DNA from: Periplaneta americana
Lineage: Eukaryota; Arthropoda; Insecta; Blattodea; Blattidae
Length of the DNA stretch: 64,000 nucleotides
Assembly (NCBI RefSeq): GCF_040183065.1
Contig: NC_091119.1
Coordinates: 198,632,543 to 198,696,542 of the forward strand
Direction: 5' to 3'
Under the pieces are notes generated by a model that searched no databases, had not been told where the DNA came from, and saw only the letters and a list, made by a program, of their open reading frames with translations. This document shows positions 1 through 35,501 of this stretch, piece after piece (position 1 is the first letter of the stretch; every line of letters starts with the position of its first letter). A program made the translations under genes and the position numbers.

Positions 1-54
1 CAATGTTACTTTGCAATAATAATCATGATGATAATAATAGTAATGATGATAATA

Positions 55-87
55 TTCATTCATTCATTCATTCATTCATTCATTCAT
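55..87 (+). repeat. (CATT)n microsatellite, LINE tail
   Basis: Pure CATT repeat abutting the 3' end of the minus-strand LINE fragment that starts at 88. Read on the minus strand it is an (AATG)n tail, as some non-LTR elements carry instead of poly-A. Confidence 0.85.
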
Positions 88-780
88 AGTGTTCTGCCCA
101 AGGGCAGCATTCTCCAAGATTCTCTTTTTTCTGCCTTCCTCTTAGTCTCCGCATATGGTCCATATATCTTAATGTTGTCTATCATCTGATATTTTTTTCT
201 GCTCCGAACTTTTCTCTCGTTCACCATTCCTTCCAGTGCATCCTTCAGTAGGCAGTTTCTTCTCAGCCAGTGACCCAACCAATTTCTTTTCCTCTTCCTG
301 ATCAGTTTCAGCATCATTATTTCTGTGGTGCTTGCGAACAGTGACATAAGTCAGTTCCCAGAAACCATTTTGGATAATTTATTGACGACTGACACTGGTT
401 TATGTCGATTTGATTTTTTTTTCTGTATGAATTATTGCAATGGAAGAAATAGGCTTACTTATGTATTTTTTTCCAAGCGAGCAGATGTTCCGTAAGTTCT
501 CAATACATTATCAAAAAAGGTTTGTGGAAACTGACTTGTGTCACTTTTCCCAAGCACTGCAGATTTGTTCTCCTTCTCTTTCCAGCACAGCTTCATTTCT
601 TGTTCTGTCTGTCCATTTAATACACTCCATTCTTGTACATATCTACATTTCAAATACTTCTAGTGATTCTCTTCACTTCGTCGTAATGTCCATGTTTCTG
701 CCTCATGCAATGCCACACTCCACACAAAGCATTTCACTAATCTCTTCCTTAGTCATTTTTCCGGAGATTCTCAGAAGATG
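88..780 (-). mobile_element. 5'-truncated non-LTR retrotransposon, C-terminal part
   Basis: On the minus strand 84-347 stays open and encodes a basic segment with the motif RKRNWLGHWLRRNCLLKDAL followed by LEGMV and a KRKAE tract, typical of the region after the reverse transcriptase in insect LINEs. Homologous sequence continues to about 780. The same family recurs at 5126-5785 and 49270-49545. A perfect 6-bp hairpin (CTGCCC/GGGCAG, 94-107) sits just inside the AATG tail. The copy is degenerate and non-functional. Clade assignment is uncertain. Confidence 0.75.
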
Positions 781-849
781 CTTCTTTTTCTGTTAAAAGC
801 TTTCTTTGACATTGCAATCGTAATGAGGTATAGTGCATTGAATACTATA

Positions 850-1091
850 AATTGGAGGGCTCAGAGCCAAAGGCGACCAACCCACAATATTTTGTATTGT
901 TCACTATTAAGCCTTTTTTTCAAAACTATACATTGTTGTTACAGATTCATGCTATATTTTTGTATTTATTCAATGTAGACCAATTAAAATAAATTGTGAA
1001 ACCAATCATTTTTTTGTCAGGATCCTCTTAATTTCAACCCTTATTTACTCATTTTGTGGATTAGTCGCCTTTGGCTCTGAGCCCTTCAATT
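850..1091. mobile_element. Short inverted-repeat element (MITE-like), 242 bp
   Basis: Terminal inverted repeats of about 30 bp: the shared core GGGCTCAGAGCCAAAGGCGA lies at about 857 and, inverted, at about 1063. The interior is AT-rich with no coding capacity. No clear target duplication was identified. Confidence 0.75.
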
Positions 1092-1347
1092 GTAGAAGGA
1101 AAATATTAAATTTCATTTCTGCAAAACAAACTACCGGAGATATGAGTTTTTGGGCATATGTTCCTTAATAAATTGACCTCTGTGTGATCTACCATTCCTC
1201 AAAGTTTGTTGGTAAGGCCCTATTAACACTCGGTATAATTATTCGAAACTCCATTACGACTTCATAAACACACAGTATTCTTGTCATTGATTAATTTGTC
1301 TTGCATAAATACTTGCTTACAACTTTAATCGGTCGAATAGTTTAATA

Positions 1348-1965
1348 TTTTTATGCTCGACCATGCCGAAATGTAGTAATTATACACCTGGTAGTAACCC
1401 TTTAATGCACCTCATTAAAGTACACCTATTCATTAAAGTTCAGGTTTTCGATTATTCTCGAATATGCAATCGAAAGACAACTAGCGAAACGTCACGGAGG
1501 CTGGAAATCCAATACTGTCGCAGAAGGTTATGTTCTGTTACTATAATAATTCGCGTTAATTGTAAATAATATTCAAATAGATTCAATTTGTCATCTCGTT
1601 TTTCAATATCTAAATCAATTTCCAAGTTATATCAAGATTAATGTTCATTTTACTCTCTAGATTATATCAAGGTCAATGACATTTGTTCCTAGGAAAAAAA
1701 ACAATACTTTCGCGTCTGCGCACATCTCACAATTTACGAGATTGCACAAAGTCAATTCCGCTCTCCAGTCAGATAAGAATAATATGAATGCTTATGAATA
1801 ATTTCAAGTTAGAAATATAGTCGAGCATAAAAAGTCGTATGAAACTTGCCTATAATGGTAATTAAGACGCTCGTATGAAAATTATGAAACGAGCGCAAGC
1901 GAGTTTCATAAACATACTCGCGTCTTAATTACTACCATTATAGGCCCATTGCATAATGTACTATT
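1348..1965 (+). mobile_element. Inverted-repeat family R1, copy 1
   Basis: First of three copies (others 32465-33083 and 34138-34787). It starts TTATGCTCGACCATGCCGAA. TATGCTCGAC recurs inverted at about 1820. A second nested palindrome follows, with arms GCCTATAATGGTAATTAAGA and its complement, at about 1849-1945. No coding capacity. This copy lacks a segment of about 50 bp found in copies 2 and 3, and its hairpin core (about 1886-1907) is inverted relative to them. Confidence 0.8.
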
Positions 1966-2045
1966 TTATATGTTTCGAAATTATCCAGGATCTCAGCTTT
2001 TCTTACTTCCGTCTCCTAGAGTAAAGTCTGATCCGCAATAGACTG

Positions 2046-2645
2046 GAGACGGAAACGAGAACGAGAACGGAAATATTGTTAAAATGTATTTAAATTTGAA
2101 CATTCACAATTAACGAGAAGCTTGCCGGAGCCCGGGAATGGGAACGTGAAAGTTAATTGTGAATGCTCACATTTAAATACATTTATTTTAACAATACTTC
2201 CGGTCCACACCTGTGGAGTAACGGTATCGAACCCGGCTCCGGAACAATTTTTCTCTCGAAATTATTCAAATCAACTTTACAGGGAGTTATACCTGAAATC
2301 TTGATTTGCATAATACACGTCACTGTTCGTTAACAGAAAACCACAATTTAAGTCACACGGAGTTAGTGTGCACTCGAAGTTGGTTGCTTGACGGTTGTCA
2401 GCCCACTTTGAGGTCTGTGGATATAGAGGGAAAAATTGGATCGGTGTCGGTTAGAGTTCCCGGGTAGCTCAGTGGTAGAGCGTTGGTACGTTAAACCAAA
2501 GGTCCCGGGTTCGATACCCGGCTCCGGAACAATTTTTCTCTCGAAATTATTCAACCTAGATGTTGATACAGCGTCGTAAAATAACCCAATAAAATAAAAA
2601 AACAATATTTCCGTTCTCGTTTGCGTTCTCGTTTCCGTTCCCGGT
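2046..2645. mobile_element. Foldback element interrupted by a SINE
   Basis: The left arm (about 2046-2120) and right arm (2146-2202 plus 2601-2645) are inverted repeats built from GGAAACGAGAACGAGAACGG and AATATTGTTAAAATGTATTT. The right arm is split by the SINE at 2203-2600, whose target duplication AACAATAYTTCCG restores the arm when removed. Confidence 0.75.
2203..2600 (+). mobile_element. Mosaic tRNA-derived SINE
   Basis: A 398-bp insert bounded by a 13-bp target duplication (2190-2202 and 2601-2613, one mismatch). It begins with the head of SINE family B (CCACACCTGTGGAGTAACGG), switches at a B-box-like sequence to family A, runs through the family A body into a tRNA-like unit (about 2457-2532: A box GTAGCTCAGTGGTAGAGC, B box GGTTCGATACC), then ends with the family B tail (GATGTTGATACAGCGTCGTA). 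About 45 bp containing CCGGAACAATTTTTCTCTCG is present twice, near 2240 and 2525. Confidence 0.75.
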
Positions 2646-3187
2646 TTATTGTGCTTAAGCCGTTTTGAGGCTTCTTCTCCGAACATTCTCCAATATCGGC
2701 TGGCTTTGAACCCTAAACAACCAAGTGCGGTAGTCACTGACTTCAGAAACTATTTCTATCGCCACATTTTGTTGTCGCTGTTGCGGAGATCAGTGATCAT
2801 GTTGTCAACGTGGCGGAACGCCTTGTCGCGACACTGTCTGTTCACTTCACAATTCAGACATAGTTTGCTGTACTGTGGCGTTCAGTTCCAGTATCGTCAG
2901 TGGCGGAATAAATGGTTTATTAAATGATTTTCAGGAAGACAGTTTGCTAGAAATCCGGAGCCAGAACGTTTTCTTTGTATAGATAGAAGCAAACTGAGGT
3001 CATTGCACTCTTTTCGATCCCTGAAGTTTCACTCGTTTGTAATTAATTTCGACACATTGGTTAATACTGATATTTCTTTTCATTAACAATCTTATCAAGA
3101 CGTCACATATGCACATTATGCGTATTGAAAAACAATTTAGTTTCTCATGTTTATCAGTTACAGTTCTGTCTACACTACATAACAAAC

Positions 3188-3246
<59 letters not shown>
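3188..3246 (+). repeat. (TTA)n microsatellite, LINE tail
   Basis: About 20 ATT/TTA units next to the 3' end of the minus-strand LINE at 3247-4140. It makes the overlapping reading frames translate as poly-isoleucine. Confidence 0.85.
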
Positions 3247-4140
3247 GTATCTCCAATGGGGGGTAGCCCTATTTTACATATGTATGCTAGGGCTATAGTT
3301 GTACACAAAAAAATAGGCCTAAGCATAAAAACAAATTGAAAAGAAAAATAAATTATCTTACACAATGTAAACAAAACATGAAACAATCCTTAATTTAAAC
3401 ATTGCGATTGTAAATTAAACATCAGGCATCAATTTGAGACATACAGAAAACAGTTACAACACACAAACATAACATTTGTTATAACCGTTCTCTATAAAAC
3501 AATTATGCAACTTTCCGTAACATACAGCATAAATTAATACACAATAGTCACACAAACACAATCAAGCATCCCTTAACTATGACTCATCATACACAACAAA
3601 TCAAGCATCCTCTACAACACATACACTTCAACATAATAGCCATACTTTTAAAAGTTACAAATTTGGCTCCAAAAGCATAAATAGGACACTGTTACTAAAT
3701 ACTGTTATTTCCTACAAGGTCTTAAACACATCTGTAATAAATCTGTGAAATTCCTTTATGCAATATTGCTTCAGAAAAACGTTTGTTAATGGTGATATGA
3801 AAGTTGTATCGCACATGCTAAGGTGGGTTTCTAGCCGGTATCTCTTGCGTTCTTGTAGCGGGCACTCGAATAACAGGTGGTCGACTGTTTGTGTGGGGTG
3901 TTCACAGGGACATGAAGAGCCGTTGGGTTGTCAATTTTGAAACGTTCGAAATATGAATTAAATTTTCCGTGTCCAGTCATGAATTGCGTGGATATGTGTG
4001 ATGGTTCATAATTCTTTACGGTTAGTCTATCTTTAACTGTGTGAAAATATAGTGATTTTGTGATTTGGCCATTTGTACTATTTAACCACATTGCATTCCA
4101 GTCATTTAACATGTCCACCATCATTTGCATTTTCACATAA
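3247..4140 (-). mobile_element. 5'-truncated LINE with RNase-H-side C-terminus
   Basis: The minus strand encodes (3831-4136) a segment with TNGQITKSLYFHTVKDRL and MTGHGKFNSYFERF, resembling the region after RNase H in R1/I-group LINEs. Further in-frame pieces lie downstream toward 3720. Its 3' end carries a perfect 8-bp hairpin (TAGCCCTA/TAGGGCTA, 3264-3295) shortly before an (AAT)n tail. The copy is broken and lacks the reverse-transcriptase domain. Confidence 0.7.
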
Positions 4141-4355
4141 ACTTAGAAAAGAAAAAAAAAACGAACAAGTTTAATTTCTTTGTAAACTGTATTGTTTTAA
4201 GTTATTATACGTAATTAATTTTTCATGAATTGACATCAAATAACCACACATATTGTATATTGTAATTCAGAGTGCACCATATTGGTGGGACACATTTCAA
4301 ATGTATATTTCTAGGAATGGAAACATTATTTTATTAAACACTATATCATGTAACT

Positions 4356-4410
4356 TCATTCATTCATTCATTCATTCATTCATTCATTCATTCATTCATT
4401 CATTCATTCA
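4356..4410 (+). repeat. (CATT)n microsatellite
   Basis: About 14 uninterrupted units. No LINE coding sequence is recognisable beside it. The flanks (4141-4355 and 4411-4600) are AT-rich with nothing else seen. Confidence 0.85.
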
Positions 4411-4599
4411 TCTCACCTATTTGAAATAATAAGTTATTATGTAAAATAAGACCTAAAAATTACAATTAAATTGTGAAAAGAAGCAGATCAATAAGGTTTA
4501 AAGTCTTAATGGTTATTATGATTGGTTTAAACATGCACTAAAACCAGACGTAAGTGCAAGTTTGAACCAATAAATTATTGAGATTTGCGATAAATTAAT

Positions 4600-5125
<526 letters not shown>

Positions 5126-5785
5126 ATTCATTCATTCATTGTTCCGCTCAAGGACAGGTCTTTCACTGCAAACCCAGCTTTCTCCAATCTTTCCAATTTT
5201 CTGCCTTCCTCTTTATCTCATATGATCCACATATCTTAATATCGTCTCTTCTGCCCCGAACTCTTCTCTCGTTCACCATTCCTTCCAGTGCAGCCTTCAG
5301 TAGGCAGTTTCTTCTCAGCCAGTGACCCAACCAATTCCTTTTTCTCTTCCTGATCAGTTTCAGCATCATTCTTTCTGTCGCCCTCGGTAGCGCAGTTGGT
5401 ATAGCGCTGGCCTTCTATGTTCGAGATTGCAGGTTCGATCCCGGCCGAAGTCGATGGCATTTAAGTGTGTTTGAATGTGACAGGGTCATGTCAGTAGATT
5501 TACTGGCATGTAAAAGAGCTCCTACGGGACAAAAATTCCGGCACACTGGCGACGCTGATATAACCTCTGCAGTTGCGAGCGTCGTTAAATAAACCATAAC
5601 TTTCAACTTTTTTCATTCTTTCTTCACCTACTCTTTCCAACACAGCTTCATTTGTTATTCTGTCTGTCCACTTCACACGCTTCATTCTTCTCCATATCCA
5701 CATTTCAAATGCTTCTATTCACGTCGCCACATTGTCCATGTTTCTGTCCCATACAATGCTATACTCCATACAAACCACTTAGTTC
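5126..5785 (-). mobile_element. LINE fragment, same family as 88-780, split by a SINE
   Basis: The minus strand encodes again a RKRNWLGHWLRRNCLLKAAL-type motif (5163-5369) and, beyond the SINE at 5377-5612, the more upstream part (5613-5785), colinear with 540-760 of the first copy. The tail is (AATG)n at 5126-5139. Degenerate. Confidence 0.75.
5377..5612 (+). mobile_element. tRNA-derived SINE, family C, with target duplication
   Basis: A 236-bp insert in the LINE, flanked by a perfect 11-bp target duplication TCATTCTTTCT (5366-5376 and 5613-5623). The head is tRNA-like: A box GGTAGCGCAGTTGGTATAGC, B box GGTTCGATCCC. The body ends GCGTCGTTAAATAAACC. It is not a functional tRNA because the anticodon arm is degenerate. 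Confidence 0.9.
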
Positions 5786-5960
5786 AAATTCTAGTTGGGA
5801 CAAATTATCTAGTTGAAGTTTTTTCCGAGGTTTTCCCTCAACCCATTAAGAGCAAACAAATGCTAGGTAACTTTCGGCGCTGGACCCTGGACTCATTTCG
5901 CTGGTATTATCAACAGTGATCTCACTAGAGGTTTTGATTTATCTAGAGAAAATCAAAACT
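5785..5960 (+). mobile_element. SINE family B, partial, plus hairpin
   Basis: It matches the body of the full family B copies (GGTTTTCCCTCAACCC, AAATGCTAGGTAACTTTCGG, GGACTCATTTCGCTGG) but lacks most of the tRNA head and all of the tail. A hairpin with arms GTTTTGATTT and AAAATCAAAAC follows at about 5932-5959. Confidence 0.65.
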
Positions 5961-7026
5961 CGGGTGGGATTTAATTGACTATTACACGATTAGAAGAAAG
6001 CAAATAAAGATTAGAAGTAACAAAGTACCCCAATACAATAAAATATTAATTGACTTATGAAAATGCAACTGTCTTCAAATGTATTATTGTATCATCTCAG
6101 CATTACGCTAGATGACAGTAGTGTGTTATGATTAGCTGTTTTCTTGTTATCAGTTGTGCCAACTATAGAATCTTCATTGAAGTGTGTGGACGGTAACTAG
6201 TCAAGAAGGCTTTGTTGATTCAGTTTCATTTTTATTAAAACATTTGCATTCAACTTCAATCATCCGGATCCCAGTAATCAACGTCACTTGACAGATGATT
6301 TTCAATAAATCTTAGTATTAAACAATCTCTGATACGTGACTATCCATAATATCATATAGCAGAAGCTATAATAATCATAACCTAAATAATATAAAGAAGT
6401 GTTAGAAAAGTTTTAATTATGGATGATGAAATAAACAAGAACAGTTTTAATTAACGATGATGAAATAAAAAATAAACATGAATAATTATAAAAGAAACAA
6501 TTATTGAAAATACAATTTTCAAATTTGAATGTTTTAGTGGTTGGTGGTTCAATTGATGTTATATTGGACGTGTGCGTAAAAGAAGTGGAACTCGTTGGTG
6601 TACATGGTGTATCCCTCAACTTATTCAGGATTTCCGAATGGTGCTCTTCATTTATTTGTAAATAGGGTTTCAGGGAAGATGCTATGACCAGTGATCTTTA
6701 TTAATTCTTGTTCTTGAATGCCAATGCGAGTCATATTTGAAAGTGCTTTGCATCGACTGGAGTGGTTTGTAATTTTCTGTTGTTTGACGTCCAGACCAGT
6801 GCAGTTTGAAATGCTGGCAAACAAAGAAACAAATGCTAGGGTAGTGATAGAAGTAAACAAATGCTAGGGACGCGATAAAATTAAACAAATGCTAGGGACG
6901 CGATAAAATTGTGCGATAAGCAGCCACGATTGGTTGAAAGACGTCCTTTCGTAGCGTTTTATTAGTCAAAAGTAGTGTGACGTAGTAAAAGTGTAATAGT
7001 CACCTTCATGTCACTCAAACGCTATA
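5961..7026. other. AT-rich stretch, no gene; weak inverted termini and a 28-bp tandem repeat
   Basis: No convincing coding frame. TGACTATTACAC at about 5983 recurs inverted near 6990, so a decayed DNA element may span the interval. A 28-bp unit (TAAACAAATGCTAGGGACGC followed by GATAAAAT) is present twice at 6854-6909, with a degenerate unit upstream. Confidence 0.4.
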
Positions 7027-7643
7027 CGAGGGACATCCAGAAAGTAAGTTTCCCGATTTTTCCCCTTGAAAGTAAACGTAATTAGCCGTGTCAATTGCGC
7101 ATGCGTAACAGATCTATGACGTATCAATCATATGCCAGCCGGACAGGTCCCGCCTGGTGCCAGTAGCGTGGCAGCAGTGGTTCGAAATTGAAGCTCTTTA
7201 TTCCTTCTCCCGCTGCCTCGAGGTTCGATCGGTGATAAAGTTCTTTAATGCACAAAGCATTGCCAGCTCTCATCGGCAGCTGTCAGGCATATGGGCCGAA
7301 CATATCTCTCTCTCTCTCTCGCTCTCCCTCTCTCTCTCGCTCCCCCTCCCTCCCTCCCTCCCTCTCTCTCTTTTTTTTCAAGAAATTCCTGTCCTCCTGT
7401 GAGCGTTTTGGCAACGACGAAGAGCTGAAGACGTCTGTCACACGCTGGTTCCATTCACAGGCGGCAGAGTTCTACGACAGAGGGATACAAAAGTTTATCC
7501 CACGATACGACGTCTCAATTCTGATGGTGGCTATGTTGAAAAATAGCTGAAACATTGCTGTATCTGTTGCCAATAAATGTTTTCCTTAAAGTGTGTGAAC
7601 TTTTTTAAAAAAATAGGGAAACTTACTTTCTGGATGCGCCTCG
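7027..7643 (+). mobile_element. Deleted mariner-type transposon
   Basis: Terminal inverted repeats of about 30 bp (CGAGGGACATCCAGAAAGTA at the left; its near complement ends at 7643) lie between TATA flanks, consistent with a TA target. The right part encodes the C-terminal end of a mariner transposase (CERFGNDEELKTSVTRWFHS, then QAAEFYDRGIQKFI) ending near 7550. The catalytic middle is absent. A CT-rich tract at 7303-7371 lies at the deletion region. Confidence 0.85.
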
Positions 7644-7959
7644 TATAACCATGGGAGTTCATGAAACGCCGTAAAATAAAGTAATTAAAAAGGATCAGTG
7701 GAAGAAGACGGGGTTAAAAAGGTAGCATAAATGTAAATATGTGTTCAAAGAAAGCCTTATATCTAAATAAGTCGATGATCCTACTTCCATTTGTGACGTT
7801 TCACCCCATTGCCAATAGTCTTGAGGTCATTATTATAAATTCCCGGAACAGTAAGGAGCTGGGAATAGATTCGGAAGTCACAGCGCTGGGGTAGCCCATG
7901 TGCAGCATCGGTAATGATCACCTATGCTGCCGGAGGAGGGAATGCCAGCCTTGATAACG

Positions 7960-8040
7960 TGACGTCACGTCGTATGGGTTCCGCGGAACCCGTCCTGCGA
8001 GTCGCCGAGTATCGACTCCATCGAGTGGCTCTTATAAAGA
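7960..8040 (+). promoter_or_regulatory. Promoter of the Gly-rich secreted protein gene
   Basis: TATAAA at 8033-8038 lies 54 bases before the start codon, putting a start site near 8063. Upstream are a perfect CRE/ATF palindrome TGACGTCA (7960-7967) and a perfect 16-bp palindrome GGGTTCCGCGGAACCC (7976-7991). The local GC content is far above the surroundings. Function is inferred from motif and position. Confidence 0.7.
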
Positions 8041-8091
8041 AGACCGCGAGAAATTCACGGCCATCCGTGAACGAGGAGCTCTGCAGACAAG

Positions 8092-8179
8092 ATGAGGCTG
8101 GGTTCTTCGTACACGCTGTTGCCCCTGGCAACGCTCCTGCTGGTGGGATTACGTCATGTGGACGCCACTCCGGAGCACG
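8092..8179 (+). CDS. Exon 1: signal peptide of Gly/Ser/Asn-rich secreted protein
   Basis: ATG at 8092 opens 29 codons plus one base: MRLGSSYTLLPLATLLLVGL, then RHVDA|TPEH. A short basic start, a leucine-rich core and an Ala-X-like cleavage site after residue 25 make a standard signal peptide. The exon ends at the consensus donor CG|GTAAGT (GT at 8180-8181). Phase 1 is completed by the AG at 16499-16500. The start is chosen because a TATA box lies 54 bases upstream and this is the first ATG after the inferred start site. Confidence 0.85.
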
Positions 8180-8319
8180 GTAAGTGGCGTTTCGTGGTCA
8201 TCTACGAGTTGTTTAATTGTACATAATGGATGTGATTACAGAATTTCAGTTTTTAATTTTTTTTTTGCGATACTACAAATAAAACAAAAATTTTTAGGTA
8301 ATTGTGTGTAAACGACCCA

Positions 8320-9030
8320 TGAAAGGAAATAGTAATATGCGTTACATGAGCGGTATCTTGAAGTTTTCATGTTCGAGGAAAAGTCTGAAAAAGCGAAACA
8401 TAGTTGAGCTTTTTTAATTTCCGAGAATTGAAAGAAAACATACCGCTCTTGTATCGTACATTATTTTGTGCGAAGATCGTTTATTACATACCTGAAAGAG
8501 GAATTTCTAATTAGTTGCAATGAAATGTCCATCTTGGTTTCTGTTCAATGACGGCAAATTTGCAAAACAAAAATATCTATCTTCAACATTGTTGCTTTCA
8601 AATGTTTTCTGCGTTTACTATACTCCAGCAGGCCGTGATATACGTCTGTCTTCCCCCCCCCCAGTCTATGATGAGTCTGGAATCTTGTTGATTTTTTCAC
8701 GGCTTCCTTAATGTTACTTGCATCACGAATGCAGTAACTTTAGTGGAGTTGTAGAGTTTACTTAAGTTTTGCAAATATTTAAAAACAATAATTAACAGTA
8801 CAATTTAGGTGAAATTGCAGTGGTAAGTTTCCAATTTATAATTATTACTATATTGAACGTCTCTAAAAATAATATGTTAAAAGCCTAAAGCAGTAAAATG
8901 AATATGTCACTTAAGCGGTAAGAAGAGGGAAATTGATATGTGTGTTAAGTTGGGAATACTGAATGTGGAATTTTAGAGTTTCCGCGGATTGGTTTTGTGC
9001 GGAAACCAAGCAAATACGCACGATCTCGCA
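8320..9030 (+). repeat. Dispersed repeat R2, copy 1 (inverted copy at 25325-26010)
   Basis: About 700 bp closely matches the reverse complement of 25325-26010, from AATATGCGTTAC to CACGATCTCGCACAAA. Within it GAGCGGTA (about 8349) and TACCGCTC (about 8441) form a foldback of roughly 100 bp. No coding capacity. It could be a DNA element or an inverted segmental duplication. Confidence 0.75.
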
Positions 9031-9214
9031 CAAACGAATTTAATTGTTTTCCCATTATTTTAAAACTAAGTTAAAACATTTAAAATTGGGCTATTAGTAT
9101 GTTTAATCACGACCAGTACACAATTATTATTTTTTAGCTGCTGATATTGCAGAGTTTTCTTGGTGGTGAACCCTCGAAATCTTGTTGCATGAGTATTAGG
9201 TTAATTGAAGAATG

Positions 9215-9860
9215 TGTCCCCAAGAGTCGCTCACAAGCAAACATTCTGATTAGGGCAGATAAAGAATTTAAAATTTTTTCTTCCACAATGTTAATAATGT
9301 CAAAAGAAGTGCTTATACAAATTTTGGCCACTCGACCGCAATCACGAGAACCGCAAAAAAATAAGTTCGCCAGGAGCCGTTAACAGGAAGAAAATAAAAT
9401 TTCATTGGAAAAATTTATTGGAACAGACACAGCAATTGTTGAGCTATTTTTCGACTTATTCCACACCGGAACTGAGACATTTGTCATATCATGGGATCGA
9501 CAGAGAGGTGCAGACGGCTGTCAAACGCTGGTTCCGATCCCATGCGGATGGCTTCTACGACACAAGGATACGAAAATTGATCTCATGGTGTAAAAAGTCT
9601 CAATTCTATTGGGGGATATGTTGAAAAATAGCGCAACAATTGCTGTATCTGTTTCAATAAATATTTCCATGCAATTGTGCTTTTCTTTCTGTAAACGGCC
9701 CCAGGGAAAATCACTTTCTGGACGGCCTCGTATTTGCGGTCGATTGGCCAAAATTAATATAAGCACTTCTTTTGACATTATTAACATGGTGGAAGAAAAA
9801 AAAATTAACTTTTTTATCTGCCCCCATCAGAGAGTTTGCTTGCCAGTCCATTTGGCCATT
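9215..9860. mobile_element. Inverted repeat enclosing a mariner 3' remnant
   Basis: Arms of about 130 bp (9215-9345 and, inverted, 9733-9860) share AAGAAGTGCTTATA and GACATTATTAACA. Between them the + strand encodes a decayed mariner transposase C-terminus (VQTAVKRWFRSHADGFYDT, about 9510-9570) followed by an end resembling mariner TIRs (CACTTTCTGGACGGCCTCG, about 9711-9729). The left mariner end is missing. Confidence 0.65.
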
Positions 9861-10365
9861 TTGATGATTTTAACATATATGTGATTATGTTTGAGATACT
9901 TATCACCATATTTTAAGCTTGTTTTCTTCCAAAACAACACCGATCCTTATGTAAAAGGTTGTGTTATTGTTCATGTCACTTGAAAACTCGATCAGTCCGG
10001 TGGGTACAAAACTAGCCCAGGCCTTTCATAAAAATGGACTTAACGCGTTTTGACATCACATTCTTCAATTGCTTCTGTTGTTATCGAATATTTTGTGGTA
10101 GTCCCAAATATATTGGTTTCTAACACAATTTGTCTAGTTTTATAACACTGTTGGCTTTTATTTCGTTACGGTATTAAAATTTATCTTGGTTACATATTCG
10201 GAAGAGAAACTGCATACAACGCTTACTGTTGACGGTTCTACAAATATAACAAAATTTCGTAGGTAATCGCGAGTAAATGACCCAGGAACGGAAAAATAAT
10301 TTAAGCCCCAATTGTTTCCACTTGTTTTAAAATAAATTTCAACATTAAAAATTCGCCTGACCGTG

Positions 10366-10575
10366 AAACTAGCGGACCCGGGTTCAGATCCTAGTTGAGA
10401 CAAGTTACTTGGTTGAGATTTTCCCTCAACCGAATAAGAGCAAATGCTGGATAACTTTAGGCTTTGATCCTGGACTCATTTCGCTGGCATTATCATCTTC
10501 ATCTCATTAAGACGTTATATAACCATAGAAGTTGCAAAAGCGTCGTAAAGTAACCAATAAAAATATTAAAGACTG
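10366..10575 (+). mobile_element. SINE family B, old degenerate copy
   Basis: It matches the family from the B box (GACCCGGGTTCAGATCC) through TTTTCCCTCAACC and GGACTCATTTCGCTGGC to GCGTCGTAAAGTAACC and an A-rich tail. The 5' tRNA half is lost or unrecognisable. Confidence 0.75.
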
Positions 10576-10689
10576 GATTATTGGAATGTTTAATTTATAG
10601 CCTCTCCATAGTCTTTTCTTTTAAAGCATTTGAGTCCTTTTGGTGGTTTGCCCCTTGAAATTTTAACCATCCTTGTTGTATGATCACTG

Positions 10690-11500
10690 CATTAATTATT
10701 ATTTATTGTTAATAAAATAACATGGACAAAAATACAATCTTAGTTCTTCCCTGAAGGAGTAAAAAACTCGTGCTCAGGGAGATATCTAAACGCAAAGATA
10801 ATTTTTTGACACAAACTGGGTCAATAAAAAAATTACAGGAATAAATTAAATTTAAAAATACAATTTCAATTTCAACAATTTAAGTCATACAATTACATGT
10901 ACATATTAAATCAATATATATTCTTTAAAAATTAAATTCCTATCGCTATTTTTGAAATTTCTGATACTAAAATTTTCCAAATTTGGGTATTTATCAATTA
11001 TTTTATTGTATAACCTTGGACCAAAGTAGGCACCATGGCTCAGAGTTGTGCTTGTGAAACACTTTGGTTCCTCTAGTCATATAAAATCGAATCTTTTAGT
11101 TCCATATTTATGATGATACAATTTGAATTTATTACGATTTTTATGTATGAAGATTAATAAGGCAATATAATAAATATGTTTAATTTAAAAAAAAAAACAT
11201 TGAAATTAGAAAACAAAAGTTCAGATGAATAATCAATTGGTTTATTAAGGCATATTTTAATAATTCTTTTCTGAATAAGCATTAGTGGAGTGAGATTAGA
11301 AATACATGCATGTCCCCACCCTAAAATTCCATACTGGAGAATGGATTGAAATAAACCTAAATAAATGAGACGTAAAATATTAATTGGTAAATATGACCGA
11401 AGTATAACAAAGATATAAATTGTTTTACGTAATCTATTGCATAAATATGTAATTGCTTCTACTGTTACCAAATCTTTTATGGACTGTATTTTGCGCTAGT
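10690..11500 (-). mobile_element. 5'-truncated jockey/CR1-type LINE
   Basis: The minus strand at 11154-11471 encodes a post-RT segment (LRLIYLGLFQSILQYGILGW then LIQKRIIKICLNKPIDYSSE), similar in plan to 31700-32395. Its 3' untranslated end holds the hairpin CCCTGA...GAGT/ACTC...TCAGGG (10749-10779). The frame is broken after this segment. Confidence 0.75.
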
Positions 11501-12107
11501 CCCTGGTACATTGGTTTGTAATATAGTTTGTCGAGTTTTGATACCATTGGCTTTCATTTCGTTAATTGTATTAAAATTTGTCTTTGTTAAATTTTCGGAA
11601 GAGAAAATGTATAAAAAGCTTCCTGTTTGCGGTTCTACAAATCACAAAATTTCTATGTAATCATGTATGTGTACAGATACGGAAATAAAATTTGGAGCTT
11701 CCTTATAACACACTGCGCATATGCAGTGAACAAGAGCTTCTGTATATATGCTACTTGTGGGCAGCCGTGCGAAATGTTTAATAATACAAATCGCTACAGG
11801 ACTATTTCTAGCAATACATTACTGCCCAAATATTGAAATAGCATTGCCTACATACAGATGGACTCCCATCAAGACTCGCTCCAAATTTTAATTCTATATG
11901 TGTATATGACCCAGGAACTGGAAACGAATTTGTTTTCCTTTTATTTGAAAACTAAGTTCAACATTTAAATTTGGGCTATTGGAATGTTTAATCCACAGCC
12001 AGTACATAATTTTTCTTAGCTACTAGTACTGAGTCCTTTCTGTGGTTTCCCCCTCGAAATTTTAACAGTTTTCTAACACGATTACGCCGTTAGCTGCTTT
12101 TAATAAA

Positions 12108-12782
12108 GGGTGCGTCAGAAAGAACGGATGGATTTCAAAATATCGATACGCAACGAGGAGAGAGATATAGTGAGGGGGACCACGACTGTTGGGTCAGCCA
12201 TAGAATGCAGTTTCAGTTGAGAATATGGTGTTGGTCTGGTGTACAACGTGCTTTCATCGTAGAGACATTTTTGAAAAATGAAGAGTCTGTGATCACCACT
12301 CAGGACTCATTTCGACATCGGATGTCACGCTAGGATTCCAACTCGGAATACAATTTTGCGGTGGGTGGCTTCATTTCGTATCACAGGTTCAACATTAAAG
12401 AAGAAATCACCTGGACGAAATTCTATTGCACTGAGATTGTCCGAGGCTACGGTAAGATCTCGCGCCCTGCGACTTCTTTCTTTGGGACCATTTGAAGGCG
12501 TAAGTTTGTAAACATCGATCACATACACTGGACGAACTGAAGACAGCGATTCGTGAAGAAATCGTGGCAATTGCACCAGCTATGACTGTGAAAGTGATGG
12601 CGAACATCAGAAAACGCCTCGATGCCTGTATTGAAAGCCAAGGACATCATATGGATAATGTTGTTTTCCATAAATAAACTGCATGTATTGGTGAATATGT
12701 TGATAACAATAAATTTTTGATTTGATGAATCTTTACAATTTTCTTGCCATGTGAAATCCATCCGTTCTTTCTGACGCACCCT
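12108..12782 (+). mobile_element. Internally deleted Tc1/mariner-superfamily element
   Basis: The terminal repeats AGGGTGCGTCAGAAAGAACG and its complement bound about 675 bp. The left part carries a decayed N-terminal helix-turn-helix region (IPTRNTILRWVASFRITGST, about 12330-12390). The right part encodes a clean transposase C-terminus (LDELKTAIREEI then MANIRKRLDACIESQGHHMD, about 12527-12676, stop TAA). The catalytic centre is missing, so the element is non-autonomous. Confidence 0.85.
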
Positions 12783-13046
12783 GTATTATCAATCTTTTAT
12801 GGGCTTTATTCTGCTCTAGTCTCTAATATGTTTGTTCTTAATATTAGTTGTCTGGTTTTGCTACAATTGGCTTTCATTTCGTCAGTTTTATTAACATTTA
12901 TCTTGCTTAAATTTTTTAAAGAACAAATTTACATAACGCTTCCGTTTTGCGGGTCTACAAGTCTTAAACAATTTCGTGGACATTCTTAATTATACATAAT
13001 GGATGTGATTACAGAATATTAGTTTAAAATTCTTTTTTAAGTTCTA

Positions 13047-14125
13047 CAGGGACATCATTTTATTTTTACTAACATTTTTAATATTAACCTGTCTATACCT
13101 TTAGAGAACCGGAAACACTGCTTGCTCCCCCCCCTCCAAGACTGGAGTTCGATGATACTGGCGTAAAACACAAATCACTCTACTAGGTATAGGAAGGAAG
13201 AAAAGTAGTTCATCCATTTACGTAAACTAGGAAATATCGCGATTTTGGTTTGATAATTTTCATTAGGTTTTTCTTTAATCAAAGTACAGTACTGTATTAA
13301 GAATGAGTGTTTTTACTCACGAAGTGAGTTATCCATGCGAACGTATTCATTATGCAGTGTATATTATACTGTCTACAGCACATTATCGTACAATATAGAG
13401 AAAGAAGTTAAATTGAAAAATAATCATAATATGAATATTTAAACACAATTTTGAAAATGGTGGCCGTTCATTTCGATACAGGCTTCAGTTCTTTTGTGCA
13501 TATTATCGCACTATAGACTATTGCATCTAATTCCAATTGCCAATTTCGTCCTTCGTACTAGTAACTCATGTTGAAATAATTCTGTACCTACTCTACGTAC
13601 TGTAAATTCAATCTTCACTTCTGCCCGACCCGAAAATATAAAACTACTCAGACATGCTATCTACTGTCCGTCCAAGTGGTTATGCCGCAGGATTGTAGAA
13701 AGGGAGGAAATCACGTGACAGTTAATTACTTAACGAGGCCCTTTTATTTAAGTTAAATTAAACAGCTGTATAATATTACGTAAACTTCCAATTCCTAAGA
13801 GAAATTAATGTTTTCAGAAAAGAGCTAAGACAGCCCAGCTATTACAGAGGGGCGAGCAGAAGCAGGTGGGGGAAATCGGGATGCGACGTAGGCAAACGGA
13901 CAGTATCTGTGCGAAAATATGATTCAATATTGAAAGCTCTTTCGTCACTGGAAAACGCGAACATATTTCTGGAACGTACTATACTCAGTAACTCAGTACT
14001 GCTTACTATCTGCGGTCTTGGTTCTGTGTGGAGTTGGAACTTCCTTAGTAGAAGGGGTGGGAGTGAAGTACATTCAAAAACTCAGGTACAGTAAAAATTG
14101 AAGTAAAAATAAAATGATGTCCCTG
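13047..14125. mobile_element. Non-autonomous DNA element D1, copy 1 (1,079 bp)
   Basis: Terminal inverted repeats of about 25 bp (CAGGGACATCATTTTATTTT) with TA on both sides (13045-13046 and 14126-14127). The flanks rejoin as GTTCTA + CAAATCGAACAAAATTTCG, matching the unoccupied sequences near 10231 and 11631. No transposase frame. Copy 2 is at 54653-55772. Confidence 0.85.
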
Positions 14126-15246
14126 TACAAATCGAACAAAATTTCGAAGATAATCGTATGTACATGAACCAGGAACGGAAAATGGATTTGTTCCTTCTGT
14201 ACAGGGTGTCTACACCGAAATGCCCTATTTTTATCTTGCTCTCAATACCAAAGAAATAAAGATAAATGAATTTTATTTACAAATATAAGTCGTATGAGGT
14301 ATTAAGTTTGTAACAAAAACCAGACATTAGCCCCTGCGTTGACACGAAGGATATGTAGGGATGGTACCAATGGTACATCTTCCCGTCTCTATCCTAATAG
14401 AGTGTAGGGCTTCTTGCAGAATGGTCAGACTGTGGCCGAACCCCTGGCTTCACGCAACCGCGTAGCAGAACGTGATCCTGTTCTTGTATACAAGGTCACC
14501 TCCTTATCTTGATCGTGTGATCACCGGAGTAATTACACCTCATTATATTTACTTCTCATCTCACAATGCGACTTAATTCCACCGAAGAGGCAGCATCCAG
14601 GCTAACATTACGACCTCTGACCTGTGGGCCTACACATCCGGGACCATTTCCCCGAAACGTTAGAAAATTCATTTCGTGCCCAACCACGAATTTCCTCGTT
14701 TCTTCTCGTTAGCACTTCTTTGAAGTGAGCCGTACTCTGCGGTCGAATGCTCACCATGCATGTCGCGGGTTCATATCCATTGCAGCATACTTTTAAAGAC
14801 ACATTTAGTACGACTTTCTTCGGGAAGGAAATCAATTAGGAGTCTCGTGTGGTAGAATTATTGCTCTAAAAGAAATGTCCTTGAATAAGGAAGGGCGTTT
14901 GCGGTAAATTTTCAGGGAACTTAATCTATTTGCGTAAAAAGAACAGCAATTTTTTGCAATATGATTGTGATGGTTTTGAGGCCACGTTTGAAACAGAGCT
15001 CAGTAATACGTAGTGGTAACTGAAGGATGTCCGTGAAATGCTTCTAAATGAATTTATTGCCAAAATCATTTTTAAAAAATACAAATACATTTTGTAAAAC
15101 ACAGCGGCATTTGCCTTTCCAATTTTCACAGGCTTAGAACTGTCCACTGCTTGGTTTAAAAATGTGGCTATGTTTAAATAGCACAAAGTACATGTAATTA
15201 AAATGTGGCTGTTTGAACTGTACTGCAGTATGACAAAGTATACTTA

Positions 15247-16157
15247 CTTACTGGATTTTAAGGAGCCCGGAGGTTCATTGCCGCCCTCACATAAGCCCGC
15301 CATCGGTCCCTATCCTGAGCAAGATTAACCCAATCAATATCATCATACCCCACCTCCCTCAAATCCATTTTAATATTATCTTCCCACCTACGTCTCGGCC
15401 TCCCTAAAGGCCTTTTTCCCTCCGGTCTCCCAACTAACACTCTATATGCATTTCTGGATTCGTCCATACATGCTATATGCCCTGCCCATCTCAAACGTCT
15501 GGATTTAATGTTCCTAATTATGTCAGGTGAAGAATACAATGCGTGCAGTTCTGTGTTGTGTAACTTTCTCCATTCTCCTGTAACTTCATCCCTCTTAGCC
15601 CCAAATATTTTCTTAAGCACCTTATTCTCAAACACCCTTAACCTATGTTCCTCTCTCAAAGTGAGAGTCCAAGTTTCACAACCATATAAAGAACAACTGG
15701 TAAATAACTGTTTTATAAATTCTAACTTTCATATTTTTTGACAACAGACTGGATGATAAAAGCTTCTCAACCGAATAATAGCAAGCATTTCCCATATTTA
15801 TTCTGTTTTAATTTCGTCCCGAGTATCATTATCATTTATATTTGTTACTGTTGCTTCCAGGTATTTGAATTTTTCCACCTCTTCAAAGGATAAATTTCCA
15901 ATTTTTATATTTTAATTTCGTACAATATTCTTGTCACGAGACATAATCATATACTTTGTCTTTTCGGGATTTACTTCCAAACCTATTTATTTACTTGCTT
16001 CAAGTAAAATTCCAGTGTTTTCCCTAATCGTTTGTGGATTTTCTCCTAACATATTCACGTCATCCGCATAGACAAGAAGCTGATGTAACCCGTTCAATTT
16101 CAAACCCTCTCTGTTATCCTGGACTTTCCTAATGGCATACTCTAGAGCAAAGAGTTA

Positions 16158-16158
<1 letters not shown>
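15247..16158 (-). mobile_element. 5'-truncated LINE family L4 with RT core remnant
   Basis: The minus strand at 15258-15659 encodes the family hallmark (VFENKVLKKIFGAKRDEVTG, NIKSRRLRWAGHI, GRPRRRWEDNIKMDLREVGY). Farther upstream (about 16030-16090) the minus strand encodes [20 protein letters not shown], the YADD catalytic motif of reverse transcriptase. Frameshifts separate the parts. The 3' end carries a short AGTA-type tail. Other copies: 23780-24085 (upstream RT part), 41302-41516, 56725-57298 and 61705-62225. Confidence 0.85.

Positions 16159-16159
<1 letters not shown>

Positions 16160-16216
<57 letters not shown>
16160..16216 (+). repeat. (TAA)n microsatellite
   Basis: About 19 units between the LINE and the splice acceptor of exon 2. 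The minus-strand frame at 16142-16411 ends in poly-tyrosine here. Its upstream part looks LINE-derived (KISKIAKLFKSNGITHNIL), so this may be the tail of another truncated element occupying about 16217-16411. Confidence 0.6.
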
Positions 16217-16498
16217 GCAAAACAAAGAAAATGGATTACAAGTGTTCCACGGTAACACTATTGTAGCTAAAATAGGGTTCTGAGGTGGTAATACTGTGAG
16301 AAACACTGAGATAGAATATATTATGGCCAGAATATTATGTGTTATTCCGTTTGATTTGAATAGTTTAGCGATTTTACTGATTTTATATTTTTTTGCATTT
16401 CTATTCTGCACTCACATCCATGAAGTACCAAACAGTAATAATATTAATACGAGTATAATGAAATAGATAATAACGATACATTATTTTCTGTTGTACAG

Positions 16499-18108
16499 AG
16501 CGACATGTGAGATCCTTGTTTGACGGAGGTCTCCTCGGTGGTATAACCAAGATACTGAACCCCAACCGGGACGGATCAAGCTCCAGTTCAGACTCCCGGA
16601 CTTCTCACCTGGAGTTCACAGGACCTCTGGGATTGCTCAAGTTCAACCTCGACTCTTCCAGTGCCAACGCAGCGTCTGGTAGCCGCGGAGGAGGAGGAGG
16701 TGGTGGTGGAGGCTCCTATTCGTCCTCCAATGCTGCGTCAAGCGCAAATACAGCCGTTGGAAACGGTGGAAGCTCAGCTGGTTCGAACGCCCACTCTAAC
16801 GCATTCGGTGGTGGTGGAGGCGGTGGTTTTAGCAACAGTGGAGCGTCCTCAAATGCCGCCTCCCATTTCAACGGAGGAGGTGGTTTCAGCAACAGTGGAG
16901 CCTCATCAAATGCCGCCTCCCAGTCTCACGGTGGGGGCGGTGGTTTCAGCAACAGTGGATCCTCATCTCAAGCTCAAAGCAATGCATACACCAACCAGGG
17001 AGGTGGTTTCGGAAATCCGCACCATCACAAGCACCACAATCGCTATGAGAATCAGATAGGAGGTGGATTCAACGGTGAGTTTGGATTCAACGGAGGTGGT
17101 GGCTTTGGACAAGGTGGAGGATTTAATCAAGGAGGCGCACTACACGGAGGAGGTGGAGGAGGTTTCAACCAAGGAGGTGGAGGAGGTTTCGGAGGTTCTT
17201 CTGGAGGAAGCCATTCAAATTCTTTTAGTAATTCTGGTAGTCAAGCCGGTGGTGGTGGTGGTTTAGGCGGTTTTGTTCCAAATGGAGGTAATCAGTTCAA
17301 CAATGGAGGTGGTGGACTCGGTGGTTTCTACCCAAGTGGAAGTAATTCTCAGGCGAGTAGTAATGCAGGAAGTCAATCTTCTGGCGGTTTAGGCGGATTT
17401 GTTCCAAATGGAGGTAACAATCAGTTCAACAACAATGCTGGTGGTGGAGCGGGTGGTTTCTATCAAGGTGGAAGTAACTCTCAGGCGAACAGTAATGCAG
17501 CAAGTCAGTCTTCTGGCGGGTTAGGCGGTTTTGTTCCAAGTGGAAGTAACTCCCAGGCTGGTAGTAATTCAGCAAGTCAGGCAGGTGGTGGACTGGGTGG
17601 TTTTTACCCAGGCGGATCCAACTCTCAATCTGCAAGTAATTCTGGAAGTCAATCAGGCGGTGGAGGTGGAGGATTTGATAGTCAGTCTTCTGCAGGAAGT
17701 AACGCAGGGAGCCAGTCTGGTGGTGGAGGAGGAGGAGGTTTCCAGGGAGGTTATGGAGGAGGCGACGATGCTGCAATCGCCGAAATATTTGGCGGCGGCG
17801 GTGGTGGTTCGGGAAGCAATGCTAACAGCCAGTCGTCTTCAGGCTCGTCAGCTAACGGAGGATCAGGTGGCTCTTCTAGCAATGCCAAGAGTCAGTCCTC
17901 ATCATCTGCTAATTCTGGTGGTTTTGGCGGATCTTCTAGCGGCGCTAAGAGTGATGCTTCCTCGTCTTCGGGGTCATTCGGTGCTGGTGGTGGAGGTAGC
18001 AGTTCCAAGAGTGATTCGTCGTCCAGTTCGTATAGTGGGTCTGGAGGCTCCAGATCCTCCAGTCATTCCAGTTCCTCATCCAACAGTGATGCTATAGTAT
18101 TCCTATAA
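16499..18108 (+). CDS. Exon 2: Gly/Ser/Asn-rich secreted structural protein
   Basis: Joined in phase to 8092-8179, this gives a 565-residue protein ending at TAA 18106-18108. The acceptor is TTGTACAG|AG. After the signal peptide comes TPEHERHVR: R31-H-V-R34 fits an R-X-X-R processing site. A short non-repetitive head follows (SLFDGGLLGGITKILNPN, then HLEFTGPLGLLKFNL). The rest is low complexity: Gly runs alternating with SNSGASSNAAS-type Ser/Asn/Ala blocks, a histidine patch HHHKHH (204-209), repeated GGLGGF(V/Y)P modules alternating with SNSQASSNAGSQ-type modules (about 275-420), an acidic DDAAIAEIF island (about 452-460), a Ser-rich Lys-dotted end and a hydrophobic terminus DAIVFL. I see no cysteine. 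Such proteins form silks, cuticle, egg coats or glues. I do not recognise the exact family. The module changes keep the frame, and no stop interrupts 1.6 kb. Confidence 0.85.
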
Positions 18109-18400
18109 TAAACTCAGTGCCAGTTGCAGTTACATCTGGAAGAAATCGCGGTGTGAACTTGTGCTCATGAAACTTGGAAGGCCGAGCCAACGGGCCATGC
18201 CAAAAGTCTTGCCATTTGCGTGTGTGGTCTTTAACCAAAGTTGCGTAAACTATCTTAAAATATACAGTTTTAAAAGAATACAACGAAGTTCCATGTTTTG
18301 ACTGAGAAACTCTCCAGCTGTAATGCTAATCCATATTTAATTTGTGTATGCAATGTGGTAATTGAAAGTGCAATAATAAAAAAAGATTTTTCTAGTTAAA
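18107..18400 (+). terminator. 3' UTR and polyadenylation signals
   Basis: AATAAA at 18107-18112 overlaps the stop codon and is probably too close to be the main signal. A second AATAAA at 18375-18380 lies about 270 bases past the stop. The mRNA most likely ends near 18400. Confidence 0.6.
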
Positions 18401-27239: not shown

Positions 27240-28205
27240 AAATACGGGTTGAACCGTAAGGAATGACATTAATTTCAAGGGGTTATTCTTTGAGGTATTT
27301 GCAACAAAAAAGTTTAATACAATGTTGCTCGTTTTTACTTCCTATTCGAAATAACAATTGTTTTAATGCAACATTTCATAGCATATTTTCAAGGGAAAAA
27401 TTGTTCCGGGGCCGGGTATCGATCCCGGGACCTCTGGTTGAACGTACCAGCGCTCTACCAACTGAGCTACCCGGGAACTCCACCCGACACCGTCTCAACT
27501 TTTCCCTTTATATCCACACAACTCGCGTAGGCTGACGAAACGCCAGAGACCCACATCGAGTGCACACAATCTCTGTATGACTTGGAATTGTGGTTTTCTG
27601 TTAACGTACACAGTGACGCATATATTAGCTCAGTTGGTAGAGCGCTGGTACGTTCAACCAGAGGTCCCGGGATCGATACCCGGCCCCGTAACAAATTTTC
27701 CCTTGAAATTATTCAAATCTGCTTTACAGGGAGCCTTACCTGAAAGACTAGATTTGCATTTCATAGCATACTTTGGGAAAGCCATTGATTGAATTTTCAA
27801 TATGGCCAGTCAATCTAAGAGAGCAGTGTATTATGATAATAGGTGATTGAAAGAATTTTAGTTTTGTCCTTTTAAATTAGCAGGAATTTGATCCGAACAA
27901 ATGTAACTTTTGGTTCTACAAAGGAATTTTACAATGTTACATTTGTTCAGATCAAATTTTTGCACATTTAAAGGATAAAATTAAAATTCTTTCAATCATT
28001 TATTATCATAATACTCTGCTCTCTTAAATTCCCTGAGTACATTGGTAACTAAATCAGTGGCTTTCCCAAAACACGCTATGAAATGTTTCATATAAAACAG
28101 TTTTTTATCTCGAAAAGGAAGCAAAAGTGAGCAAAATTATATTAAACTTTTTGTTCGATATATCTCAAAGAATAACCTCTTGAAATTGACATTACTCTGT
28201 ATATA
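27240..28205. mobile_element. Large foldback element
   Basis: Long inverted arms: 27264-27398 plus 27754-27845 pair with 27960-28195. Shared blocks are GGTTATTCTTTGAG, AAAAAGTTTAATA, CATTTCATAGC, CTTTCCCAAA and GAAAGAATTTTAGTTTTGTC (in one arm; TAAAATTAAAATTCTTTC in the other). The left arm is interrupted by the insert at 27399-27753. No transposase. Confidence 0.75.
27399..27753. mobile_element. Palindromic pair of family A tRNA-like units
   Basis: The insert lies between repeats of CATTTCATAGCATA (about 27374-27387 and 27755-27768), consistent with a target duplication. The minus-strand unit (27404-27478) and the plus-strand unit (27627-27690) both carry TAGCTCAGTTGGTAGAGCGC and GGGATCGATACCCGG. 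The spacer matches the family A body seen at 2330-2455. The plus unit is cut upstream of TTAGCTCAG. Confidence 0.7.
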
Positions 28206-35065: not shown

Positions 35066-35501
35066 GAACCTTATTCAGAAGTAAATATAAAATAAAATAT
35101 GCAGTATGAAATTAGCATTTGAAGTGGAGACTGTACTGTGTAGGTTAGTTTTTAAAATATATCGTATGTGACGAAGCCTATTATTTGTTTTAATAGTCTA
35201 ATAAATTGAATTGAATACAACATGGACCTCGAGTCATAATATCCTAGTTCCACGTTCTGCAACGCTTGATAGTGTGGTTACTCGGTTCTCACCGGACAAA
35301 CATCCCACAAAACTTCCCGGATATGTGGATACTTCATATAGGTCATCGTACAACCCTTCCTTCACAGAAAACACAGGATGTAGCTATCTACGCACCTTTC
35401 TTCCGATAACTGAAGTTATTCAGAACTTTGAGTTGGTCATTCTCGTCTTTCAATACCTTATTAGCAGAGAGCGGAAGTTTAGGCATTATGAATCATTAAA
35501 A
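35066..35501. other. No recognised gene
   Basis: A 97-codon frame at 35211-35504 has no family resemblance and runs into the satellite. Left unassigned. Confidence 0.35.

What the first reader, a model, noticed from the sequence alone, without database searches (positions are those of the whole stretch)
8092..18108. Two-exon gene for a large cysteine-free Gly/Ser/Asn-rich secreted protein
Exon 1 (signal peptide, phase 1) and exon 2 join in frame at consensus splice sites across 8.3 kb. The head SLFDGGLLGGITKIL follows an R-X-X-R site (R31-R34). The body alternates two module types and has a histidine patch (204-209) and an acidic island (about 452-460), both possible metal- or pH-sensitive points in an otherwise neutral fibre. 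I do not recognise the family.
Basis: partly seen in the sequence, partly recalled or inferred. Interest (0 to 1): 0.7.

Follow-up and report, generated by a model that had tools for sequence, protein, structure and literature searches.

The report
Cockroach silk-like secreted structural protein gene
This is a believable two-exon cockroach gene for a secreted, glycine- and serine-rich building-material protein whose polar stretches follow a nearly strict every-other-residue serine/alanine rule, as in some silks, so it is probably a cuticle or gland-secretion component of a known general kind rather than something wholly new.

Summary
The window is almost certainly from the Periplaneta americana assembly PAMFEO1. 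ATG 8092, donor after 8179 and acceptor before 16499 join in phase 1: 565 residues, no Cys. Exon 2 has no Met, so it needs an upstream exon; 8092-8179 is the best of 12 scored candidates and has a TATA box. No Pfam family matches, and exon 2 finds only itself in the genome at E <= 0.001. Best reading: a silk-like secreted structural protein, probably cuticular. It meets the published glycine threshold; the signal peptide was judged by eye. Glycine/phenylalanine blocks alternate with polar blocks about every 20-24 residues. New here: polar blocks obey a (Ser/Ala)-X rule. Larger polar residues keep one register in 55 of 56 cases (His patch left out), and Ser/Ala fill 110 of 111 opposite positions, the pattern of two-faced beta-strands. 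Caddisfly fibroin combines GGX and SXSXSX too, but its X is hydrophobic and it is far larger. Two more glycine-rich exons lie within about 165 kb; one obeys the same rule. Metal or pH sensing is untested. No expression data and no other insect could be searched.

The parts
7957..7970 (.). 14-bp perfect palindrome ACGTGACGTCACGT holding TGACGTCA (a CRE-like site, recalled), upstream of the TATA box; role unknown
   Evidence: 1 match in the window at up to 2 mismatches; 8 of 100 shuffles had at least one. The 8-bp core alone is not above chance (42 of 100 shuffles)
8033..8038 (+). TATA box TATAAA, 59 bp upstream of the ATG
   Evidence: sequence
8092..8179 (+). Exon 1 coding part: leader MRLGSSYTLLPLATLLLVGLRHVDA, then TPEH and the first base of the split codon; phase 1
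   Evidence: VDA before the cut fits the -3,-1 rule (recalled), no SignalP run
8180..16498 (+). 8.3-kb phase-1 intron, GTAAG...ACAG, holding transposon debris (LINE-like reading on the - strand at 15258-15728)
16499..18108 (+). Exon 2 coding part, residues 30 (split codon) to 565 and stop TAA
16501..16512 (+). RHVR, residues 31-34, possible proprotein cleavage site
16513..16686 (+). Head, residues 35-92 (SLFDGGLLGGITKIL ... HLEFTGPLGLLKFNLD ...), the least repetitive part
   Evidence: no Pfam, NCBIfam or PDB sequence match
16813..16967 (+). First repeat array, 57-bp unit, 2.7 copies
17020..17037 (+). His patch HHHKHH, residues 204-209
17256..17550 (+). Second repeat array, 132-bp unit (GGLGGF[VY]P + S-N-S-Q-A... 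modules); overlapping rows run to 17604
17764..17790 (+). DDAAIAEIF, residues 452-460, the 'acidic island'
18375..18380 (+). AATAAA, candidate polyadenylation signal
   Evidence: read from the sequence

Best explanation
A real two-exon cockroach gene for a secreted silk-like structural protein, most likely of cuticle or another epidermal extracellular material. Shown from sequence: a start exon with a hydrophobic leader, no later membrane-like segment, a short hydrophobic head, and a 473-residue body in which Gly/Phe blocks alternate with polar blocks under a (Ser/Ala)-X rule. Inferred: after signal-peptide removal, and perhaps cutting at RHVR, the head helps assembly; the polar blocks form beta-strands with a close-packing Ser/Ala face and an Asn/Gln face that hydrogen-bonds neighbouring chains; the Gly/Phe blocks are flexible, weakly sticky links. 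The result would be a physically cross-linked matrix, since there are no cysteines and few Lys and Tyr for covalent cross-links.
For: Gene model and start exon. Protein-level constraint: mismatches between repeat copies fall 11, 12 and 27 on codon positions 1, 2 and 3 (binomial P 0.002, four unit pairs; one further mismatch between unlike positions left out); 33 of 57 S-x-S serine pairs use different codon boxes (TCN against AGY) and only 7 share a codon, so copying of short DNA units does not easily explain the rule. Grammar: 86 of 104 pairs even with the His patch kept, 0 of 5000 shuffles; 74 of 76 without it; 26 of 26 in residues 421-565, outside the tandem arrays; 55 of 56 residues in register and 110 of 111 opposite positions Ser/Ala (His patch left out). 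No N-glycosylation sequon in residues 26-565; shuffles mean 12.9, fewest 5 of 2000. Silk-like definition: 405 of 461 80-residue windows have >= 25% Gly (definition read in passages of PMC4944945). Neighbours: 3 of 271 stop-to-stop ORFs >= 100 aa in 344 kb have >= 20% Gly, all within about 165 kb; neighbour a follows the same rule, 30 of 32 pairs.
Against: No expression, tissue or protein data. Beta-structure not measured, and structure prediction was never accepted. Pfam gave no family, so no chitin-binding domain of a curated kind. The chain is slightly acidic (pI 6.4-6.7), whereas silkworm CPG proteins are said to be usually basic (PMC2542385), and it has one GGY. Repeat copies are not independent, which inflates the shuffle statistics for the arrays. 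Under a block definition that forbids Gly but lets hydrophobic residues in, and in which the His stretch stays, the rule weakens to 96 of 155 pairs (still 0 of 1000 shuffles); tests on Gln alone or on K/D/E/R alone are weak or not significant. How common such a register is in other Ser-rich proteins was not measured.
Confidence: 0.66

Rival explanations
1. A gland secretion rather than cuticle: egg-case (colleterial), salivary, male accessory or dermal gland glue or fibre.
For: Gene anatomy and composition do not tell cuticle from glue or silk; the silk-like definition covers silk, chorion and cuticle alike (PMC4944945). GGX plus SXSXSX is a combination known from a silk (PMC6302954).
Against: A Gly/Tyr GGY-type exon, the kind described for cuticle CPG proteins, lies about 163 kb away. 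In silkworm 74 of 178 silk-like hits had known material roles, mostly cuticle (PMC4944945). The chain has only 9 Tyr, unlike the Tyr-rich egg-case proteins (recalled).
Confidence: 0.22
2. A precursor whose head (SLFDGGLLGGITKIL... after RHVR) is released as a bioactive or membrane-active peptide, the body being a carrier.
For: R-X-X-R directly before a hydrophobic head; the head is the least repetitive part.
Against: No other R-X-X-R in the chain, so no obvious cut after the head; helical moment of the first 15 head residues is low (0.22) and they hold one Asp and one Lys, so no net charge. Most coding sequence is body, with codon-position evidence of constraint.
Confidence: 0.06
3. Exons wrongly joined, or a silent relic.
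For: No transcript evidence could be examined; the intron is 8.3 kb and holds transposon debris.
Against: 544 open codons, third-position excess, no Met in exon 2 and a top-ranked leader exon with TATA box.
Confidence: 0.06

Closest known systems
Silk-like structural proteins (SLSPs, SilkSlider class; PMC4944945, passages seen)
   Same: Leader, no later membrane-like segment, long domain above 25% Gly.
   Different: The class is defined by composition, not descent; this member also has a (Ser/Ala)-X rule.
Insect glycine-rich cuticular proteins, CPG (PMC2542385, PMC5044703, PMC12426002, passages seen)
   Same: Secreted-looking, 46 GGxG matches, 18 GGF.
   Different: One GGY, pI 6.4-6.7 instead of usually above 8, and 23% Ser.
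Caddisfly H-fibroin (PMC4929942, PMC6302954, passages seen)
   Same: GGX and SXSXSX motifs in one repetitive chain.
   Different: There X is usually aliphatic or Arg, serines are phosphorylated and Ca2+-bridged, mass above 300 kDa; here X is mainly Asn or Gln, also Lys, Asp, His, Gly or Ser, and the chain is 52 kDa.
Tubuliform (egg-case) spidroin TuSp1 (recalled)
   Same: Ser-rich dipeptide motifs such as SQ and SA (recalled).
   Different: Very large, with conserved spidroin termini (recalled); no comparison was run, and the passages seen of PMC3879032 say nothing of its motifs.

Membership tests
Silk-like structural protein (SLSP) | Signal peptide and no transmembrane segment | tested here: inconclusive
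   Hydrophobic leader with V-D-A cut site; highest 19-residue hydropathy after it is 0.58. SignalP and TMHMM were not available
Silk-like structural protein (SLSP) | At least 25% Gly in an 80-residue window | tested here: met
   405 of 461 windows, maximum 51%; definition
Cuticular protein glycine-rich (CPG) | GGxG / GGxGG repeats | tested here: met
   46 GGxG matches, overlapping ones counted; definition
Cuticular protein glycine-rich (CPG) | Usually basic, pI above 8 | tested here: not met
   pI 6.72 precursor, 6.50 and 6.43 processed; 'usually'
Cuticular protein glycine-rich (CPG) | Found in cuticle or epidermis | not testable with these tools
   No expression data
CPR (R&R) or other Pfam-defined cuticle family | Conserved chitin-binding or family domain | tested here: not met
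   0 Pfam families at E <= 10 for the whole chain and for residues 1-92
Caddisfly H-fibroin | (SX)n with X aliphatic or Arg | tested here: not met
   (S/A)-X pattern present, but X is mainly Asn or Gln, no aliphatic residue within the blocks as defined
Caddisfly H-fibroin | Mass above 300 kDa | tested here: not met
   51.8 kDa
Caddisfly H-fibroin | Conserved non-repetitive termini | not tested
   No caddisfly sequence was compared
Caddisfly H-fibroin | Phosphoserine with Ca2+ bridges | not testable with these tools
   Needs protein chemistry

The most novel reading that the evidence does not exclude
A cockroach lineage has evolved its own block-copolymer material with a strict (Ser/Ala)-X beta-strand code whose second face is amide (Asn/Gln) instead of aliphatic or phosphate, and which avoids N-glycosylation sites. 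It is carried by a small local cluster of structural genes, an independent counterpart of the caddisfly GGX + SX design.
Probability: 0.28. Interest if true: 0.6.

Novelty: new member of a known kind. Interest (0 to 1): 0.36.

Why it matters
If the grammar is real in the protein, it gives a clean and testable case of sequence-coded beta-strand faces in a cockroach material: amide faces against small-residue faces, without cysteine, N-linked sugar or much tyrosine. It would show that the GGX-plus-SX design arose in more than one insect lineage, and it offers a short, well-defined repeat for material tests. As an annotation it adds a placed, two-exon model and a small cluster of glycine-rich exons.

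Tried and rejected
Whole-genome search for paralogues: the first 99 residues of the exon-2 ORF, residues 30-565, and neighbour a each found only themselves at E <= 0.001. These searches may miss low-complexity relatives. A head search at E <= 10, a search with neighbour b and one with the leader did not complete.

Repeat comparison chosen by protein identity gave more synonymous change, but the choice biases it; I used instead. One of its four alignments has an 11-base and a 1-base gap that look like alignment artefacts.

Alignment of residues 35-565 with neighbour a scores 313, above all 300 seven-residue-block shuffles (mean 247, largest 299); with neighbour b it does not stand out (103 of 300 reach it), nor does a against b (55 of 300). 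I do not claim common descent. Leader exons for the neighbours: six candidates each; for b one of the six has a TATA box but the weakest donor (7.1 bits), and none was convincing for a.

CRE core alone: not above chance. NCBIfam gave one weak hit for neighbour a, to a bacterial adhesin (E 0.0063, below cut-off), dismissed as low complexity; Pfam gave none for a or b at E <= 1. A clustering probability rests on guessed numbers of such genes in the genome and is not used. Literature: ten answered searches; three strings of the head found 0 papers. I saw no paper on this gene in the listings, which cover open-licence papers only and were not all aimed at it. Passages of PMC5377371, PMC2848646 and PMC3879032 were seen and not relied on.
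Full report
WHERE IT IS. The window is C3:198632543-198696542 of a genome of 3,231,669,367 bases in 91 contigs. The American cockroach assembly PAMFEO1_priV1 is 3.23 Gb in 91 scaffolds (PMC12774602, passages seen). Size and count agree, so I take the species to be Periplaneta americana; this rests on those two numbers and on the insect-like look of the sequence, not on a named record.

THE GENE MODEL. Exon 2 contains no Met at all, so whatever its function, it needs an upstream start exon. Among 269 upstream ATGs in 1-16400, 12 ATG-to-donor pairings fit phase 1 with a donor score of 5 bits or more; 3 of these have a hydrophobic stretch, two of them using one and the same donor. A TATA box lies 59 bp upstream of the ATG. 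The open frame of 544 codons is far above shuffles (mean 129, largest 302 of 500). Between repeat copies, mismatches fall 11, 12 and 27 on the three codon positions (P 0.002), as expected if the protein is constrained. Whether it is transcribed was not testable.

THE PROTEIN. 565 residues, 51.8 kDa; 29.6% Gly, 23.2% Ser, 9.2% Asn, 8.1% Ala, 5.5% Phe; no Cys or Trp, 6 Lys, 9 Tyr; pI 6.72. No Pfam family at E <= 10, no NCBIfam family for the head at E <= 1, no PDB sequence match for the head at E <= 10. In its own genome the first 99 residues of the exon-2 ORF, and residues 30-565, find only themselves at E <= 0.001; the tool warns that repeats and large families are undercounted.

THE GRAMMAR. 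The body alternates Gly/Phe and polar blocks with a period of 20-24 residues (positive autocorrelation at lags 18-25, z to 6.6; negative at 11-13, z to -4.9). Inside the polar blocks the larger polar residues (N, Q, K, D, E, R, H, T) lie at even distances: 86 of 104 pairs up to 12 apart, against 0.456 +/- 0.036 in within-block shuffles, 0 of 5000. That count includes the His patch, where every position is polar; without it 74 of 76. By residue, 55 of 56 keep their block's register and 110 of 111 positions of the other register are Ser or Ala, against 31 of 102 in the X register (His patch left out, 16 blocks). By region: 19 of 21 pairs in residues 93-200 (1 of 3000 shuffles as high), 29 of 29 in 258-420, 26 of 26 in 421-565, which lies outside the tandem arrays (0 of 3000 each). 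Repeat copies are not independent, so 421-565 is the fairest test, though it still resembles the other modules. Two other block definitions were tried: 86 of 98 and 96 of 155 pairs, each with 0 of 1000 shuffles as high; the second lets hydrophobic residues in and keeps the His stretch. Single-class tests for Q or for K/D/E/R are weak because counts are small (14 to 558 and 53 to 103 of 1000 shuffles as high). Serines two apart use different codon boxes in 33 of 57 cases, so a recent two-codon DNA repeat is not the cause.

A side effect or a second constraint: 52 Asn but no N-X-S/T sequon in residues 26-565; whole-chain shuffles average 12.9 and never fall under 5 (2000 shuffles), and within-block shuffles never under 4. 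The rule puts many Ser at odd distances from Asn, which accounts for part of this; selection against glycosylation is possible but not separable here.

THE NEIGHBOURHOOD. In 344 kb joined from 28 fetched stretches and the window, 3 of 271 stop-to-stop ORFs of 100 aa or more have at least 20% Gly: exon 2; neighbour a (C3:198712398-198713091, minus strand); neighbour b (C3:198813841-198814305, minus strand). Neighbour a has RVRR before a Ser/Gly/Gln body and obeys the register rule: 30 of 32 pairs, 21 of 22 residues. Neighbour b is a Gly/Tyr GGY protein with a tail SYSQSQASSSSS whose Gln and Tyr are also in one register by eye. A leader exon for b with TATA box and phase 1 is possible at 198838272-198838199, one of six candidates and the one with the weakest donor; none was convincing for a. 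Common descent is not shown: only the alignment of the gene with a beats block shuffles. How dense such exons are elsewhere in the genome was not measured.

HOW IT PROBABLY WORKS. Alternating small and polar residues put Ser/Ala on one side of an extended strand and amides on the other. Inferred: polar blocks pair into beta-sheets, the Ser/Ala faces packing closely and the amide faces hydrogen-bonding; Gly/Phe blocks stay flexible and weakly sticky. This works like silk. Caddisfly H-fibroin joins GGX, SXSXSX and GPGX motifs (PMC6302954, passages), and its (pSX)n motifs form Ca2+-bridged beta-domains with X usually aliphatic or Arg (PMC4929942, passages). Here X is mainly Asn or Gln, so phosphate bridging is only a possibility and membership fails.

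WHAT IT IS FILED UNDER. [quoted passage not shown] In silkworm that screen returned 178 proteins: 74 with known material roles, mostly cuticle, 71 likely ones, 5 collagen-like, 3 of extracellular matrix and 25 uncharacterised, none known for a non-material role (same passages). CPG is met by motif, not by charge. I rate cuticle or other epidermal material as most likely and gland secretion as the main rival.

His patch and acidic residues exist but nothing tested bears on metal or pH response. RHVR may be cut; untested. Structure prediction of the head was requested seven times and never accepted.

Noticed in passing
C3:198712398-198713091 (-), about 62 kb past the gene; loci L009, L031: Ser/Gly/Gln-rich secreted-looking exon with RVRR site and the same (Ser/Ala)-X register rule (30 of 32 pairs).
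   Followed up: partly
C3:198813841-198814305 (-), about 163 kb past the gene; locus L024: Gly/Tyr-rich GGY exon, cuticle-like, with a Ser/Gln tail; a TATA-bearing leader exon about 24 kb upstream of it is one of six weak candidates.
   Followed up: partly
window 7957-7970: Perfect 14-bp palindrome ACGTGACGTCACGT about 62 bp upstream of the TATA box.
   Followed up: partly
window 16501-18105 (residues 31-565): 52 Asn without a single N-glycosylation sequon, far below shuffles.
   Followed up: partly
window 51273-53354: 2.1-kb (TCTA)n array, 99% matches, open in three frames as an artefact; a shorter one at 4701-5125.
   Followed up: no
window 35497-36794 and 45193-46438: Minisatellite of 38 copies of a 34-bp unit, and 5 copies of a 249-bp unit.
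   Followed up: no
window 30241-30930: 285-bp unit repeated 2.4 times at 94% matches.
   Followed up: no
window 2458-2530, 27403-27476, 60445-60516, 27626-27683: tRNA-like genes (Asn, Asn, Tyr) and one weak tRNA match; may be true tRNAs or SINE heads.
   Followed up: no
window 15258-15728, 50123-51172, 56849-57340, 61760-62401: LINE-like fragments (named from memory), three of them with the same RPRRRWEDN-type tail.
   Followed up: no
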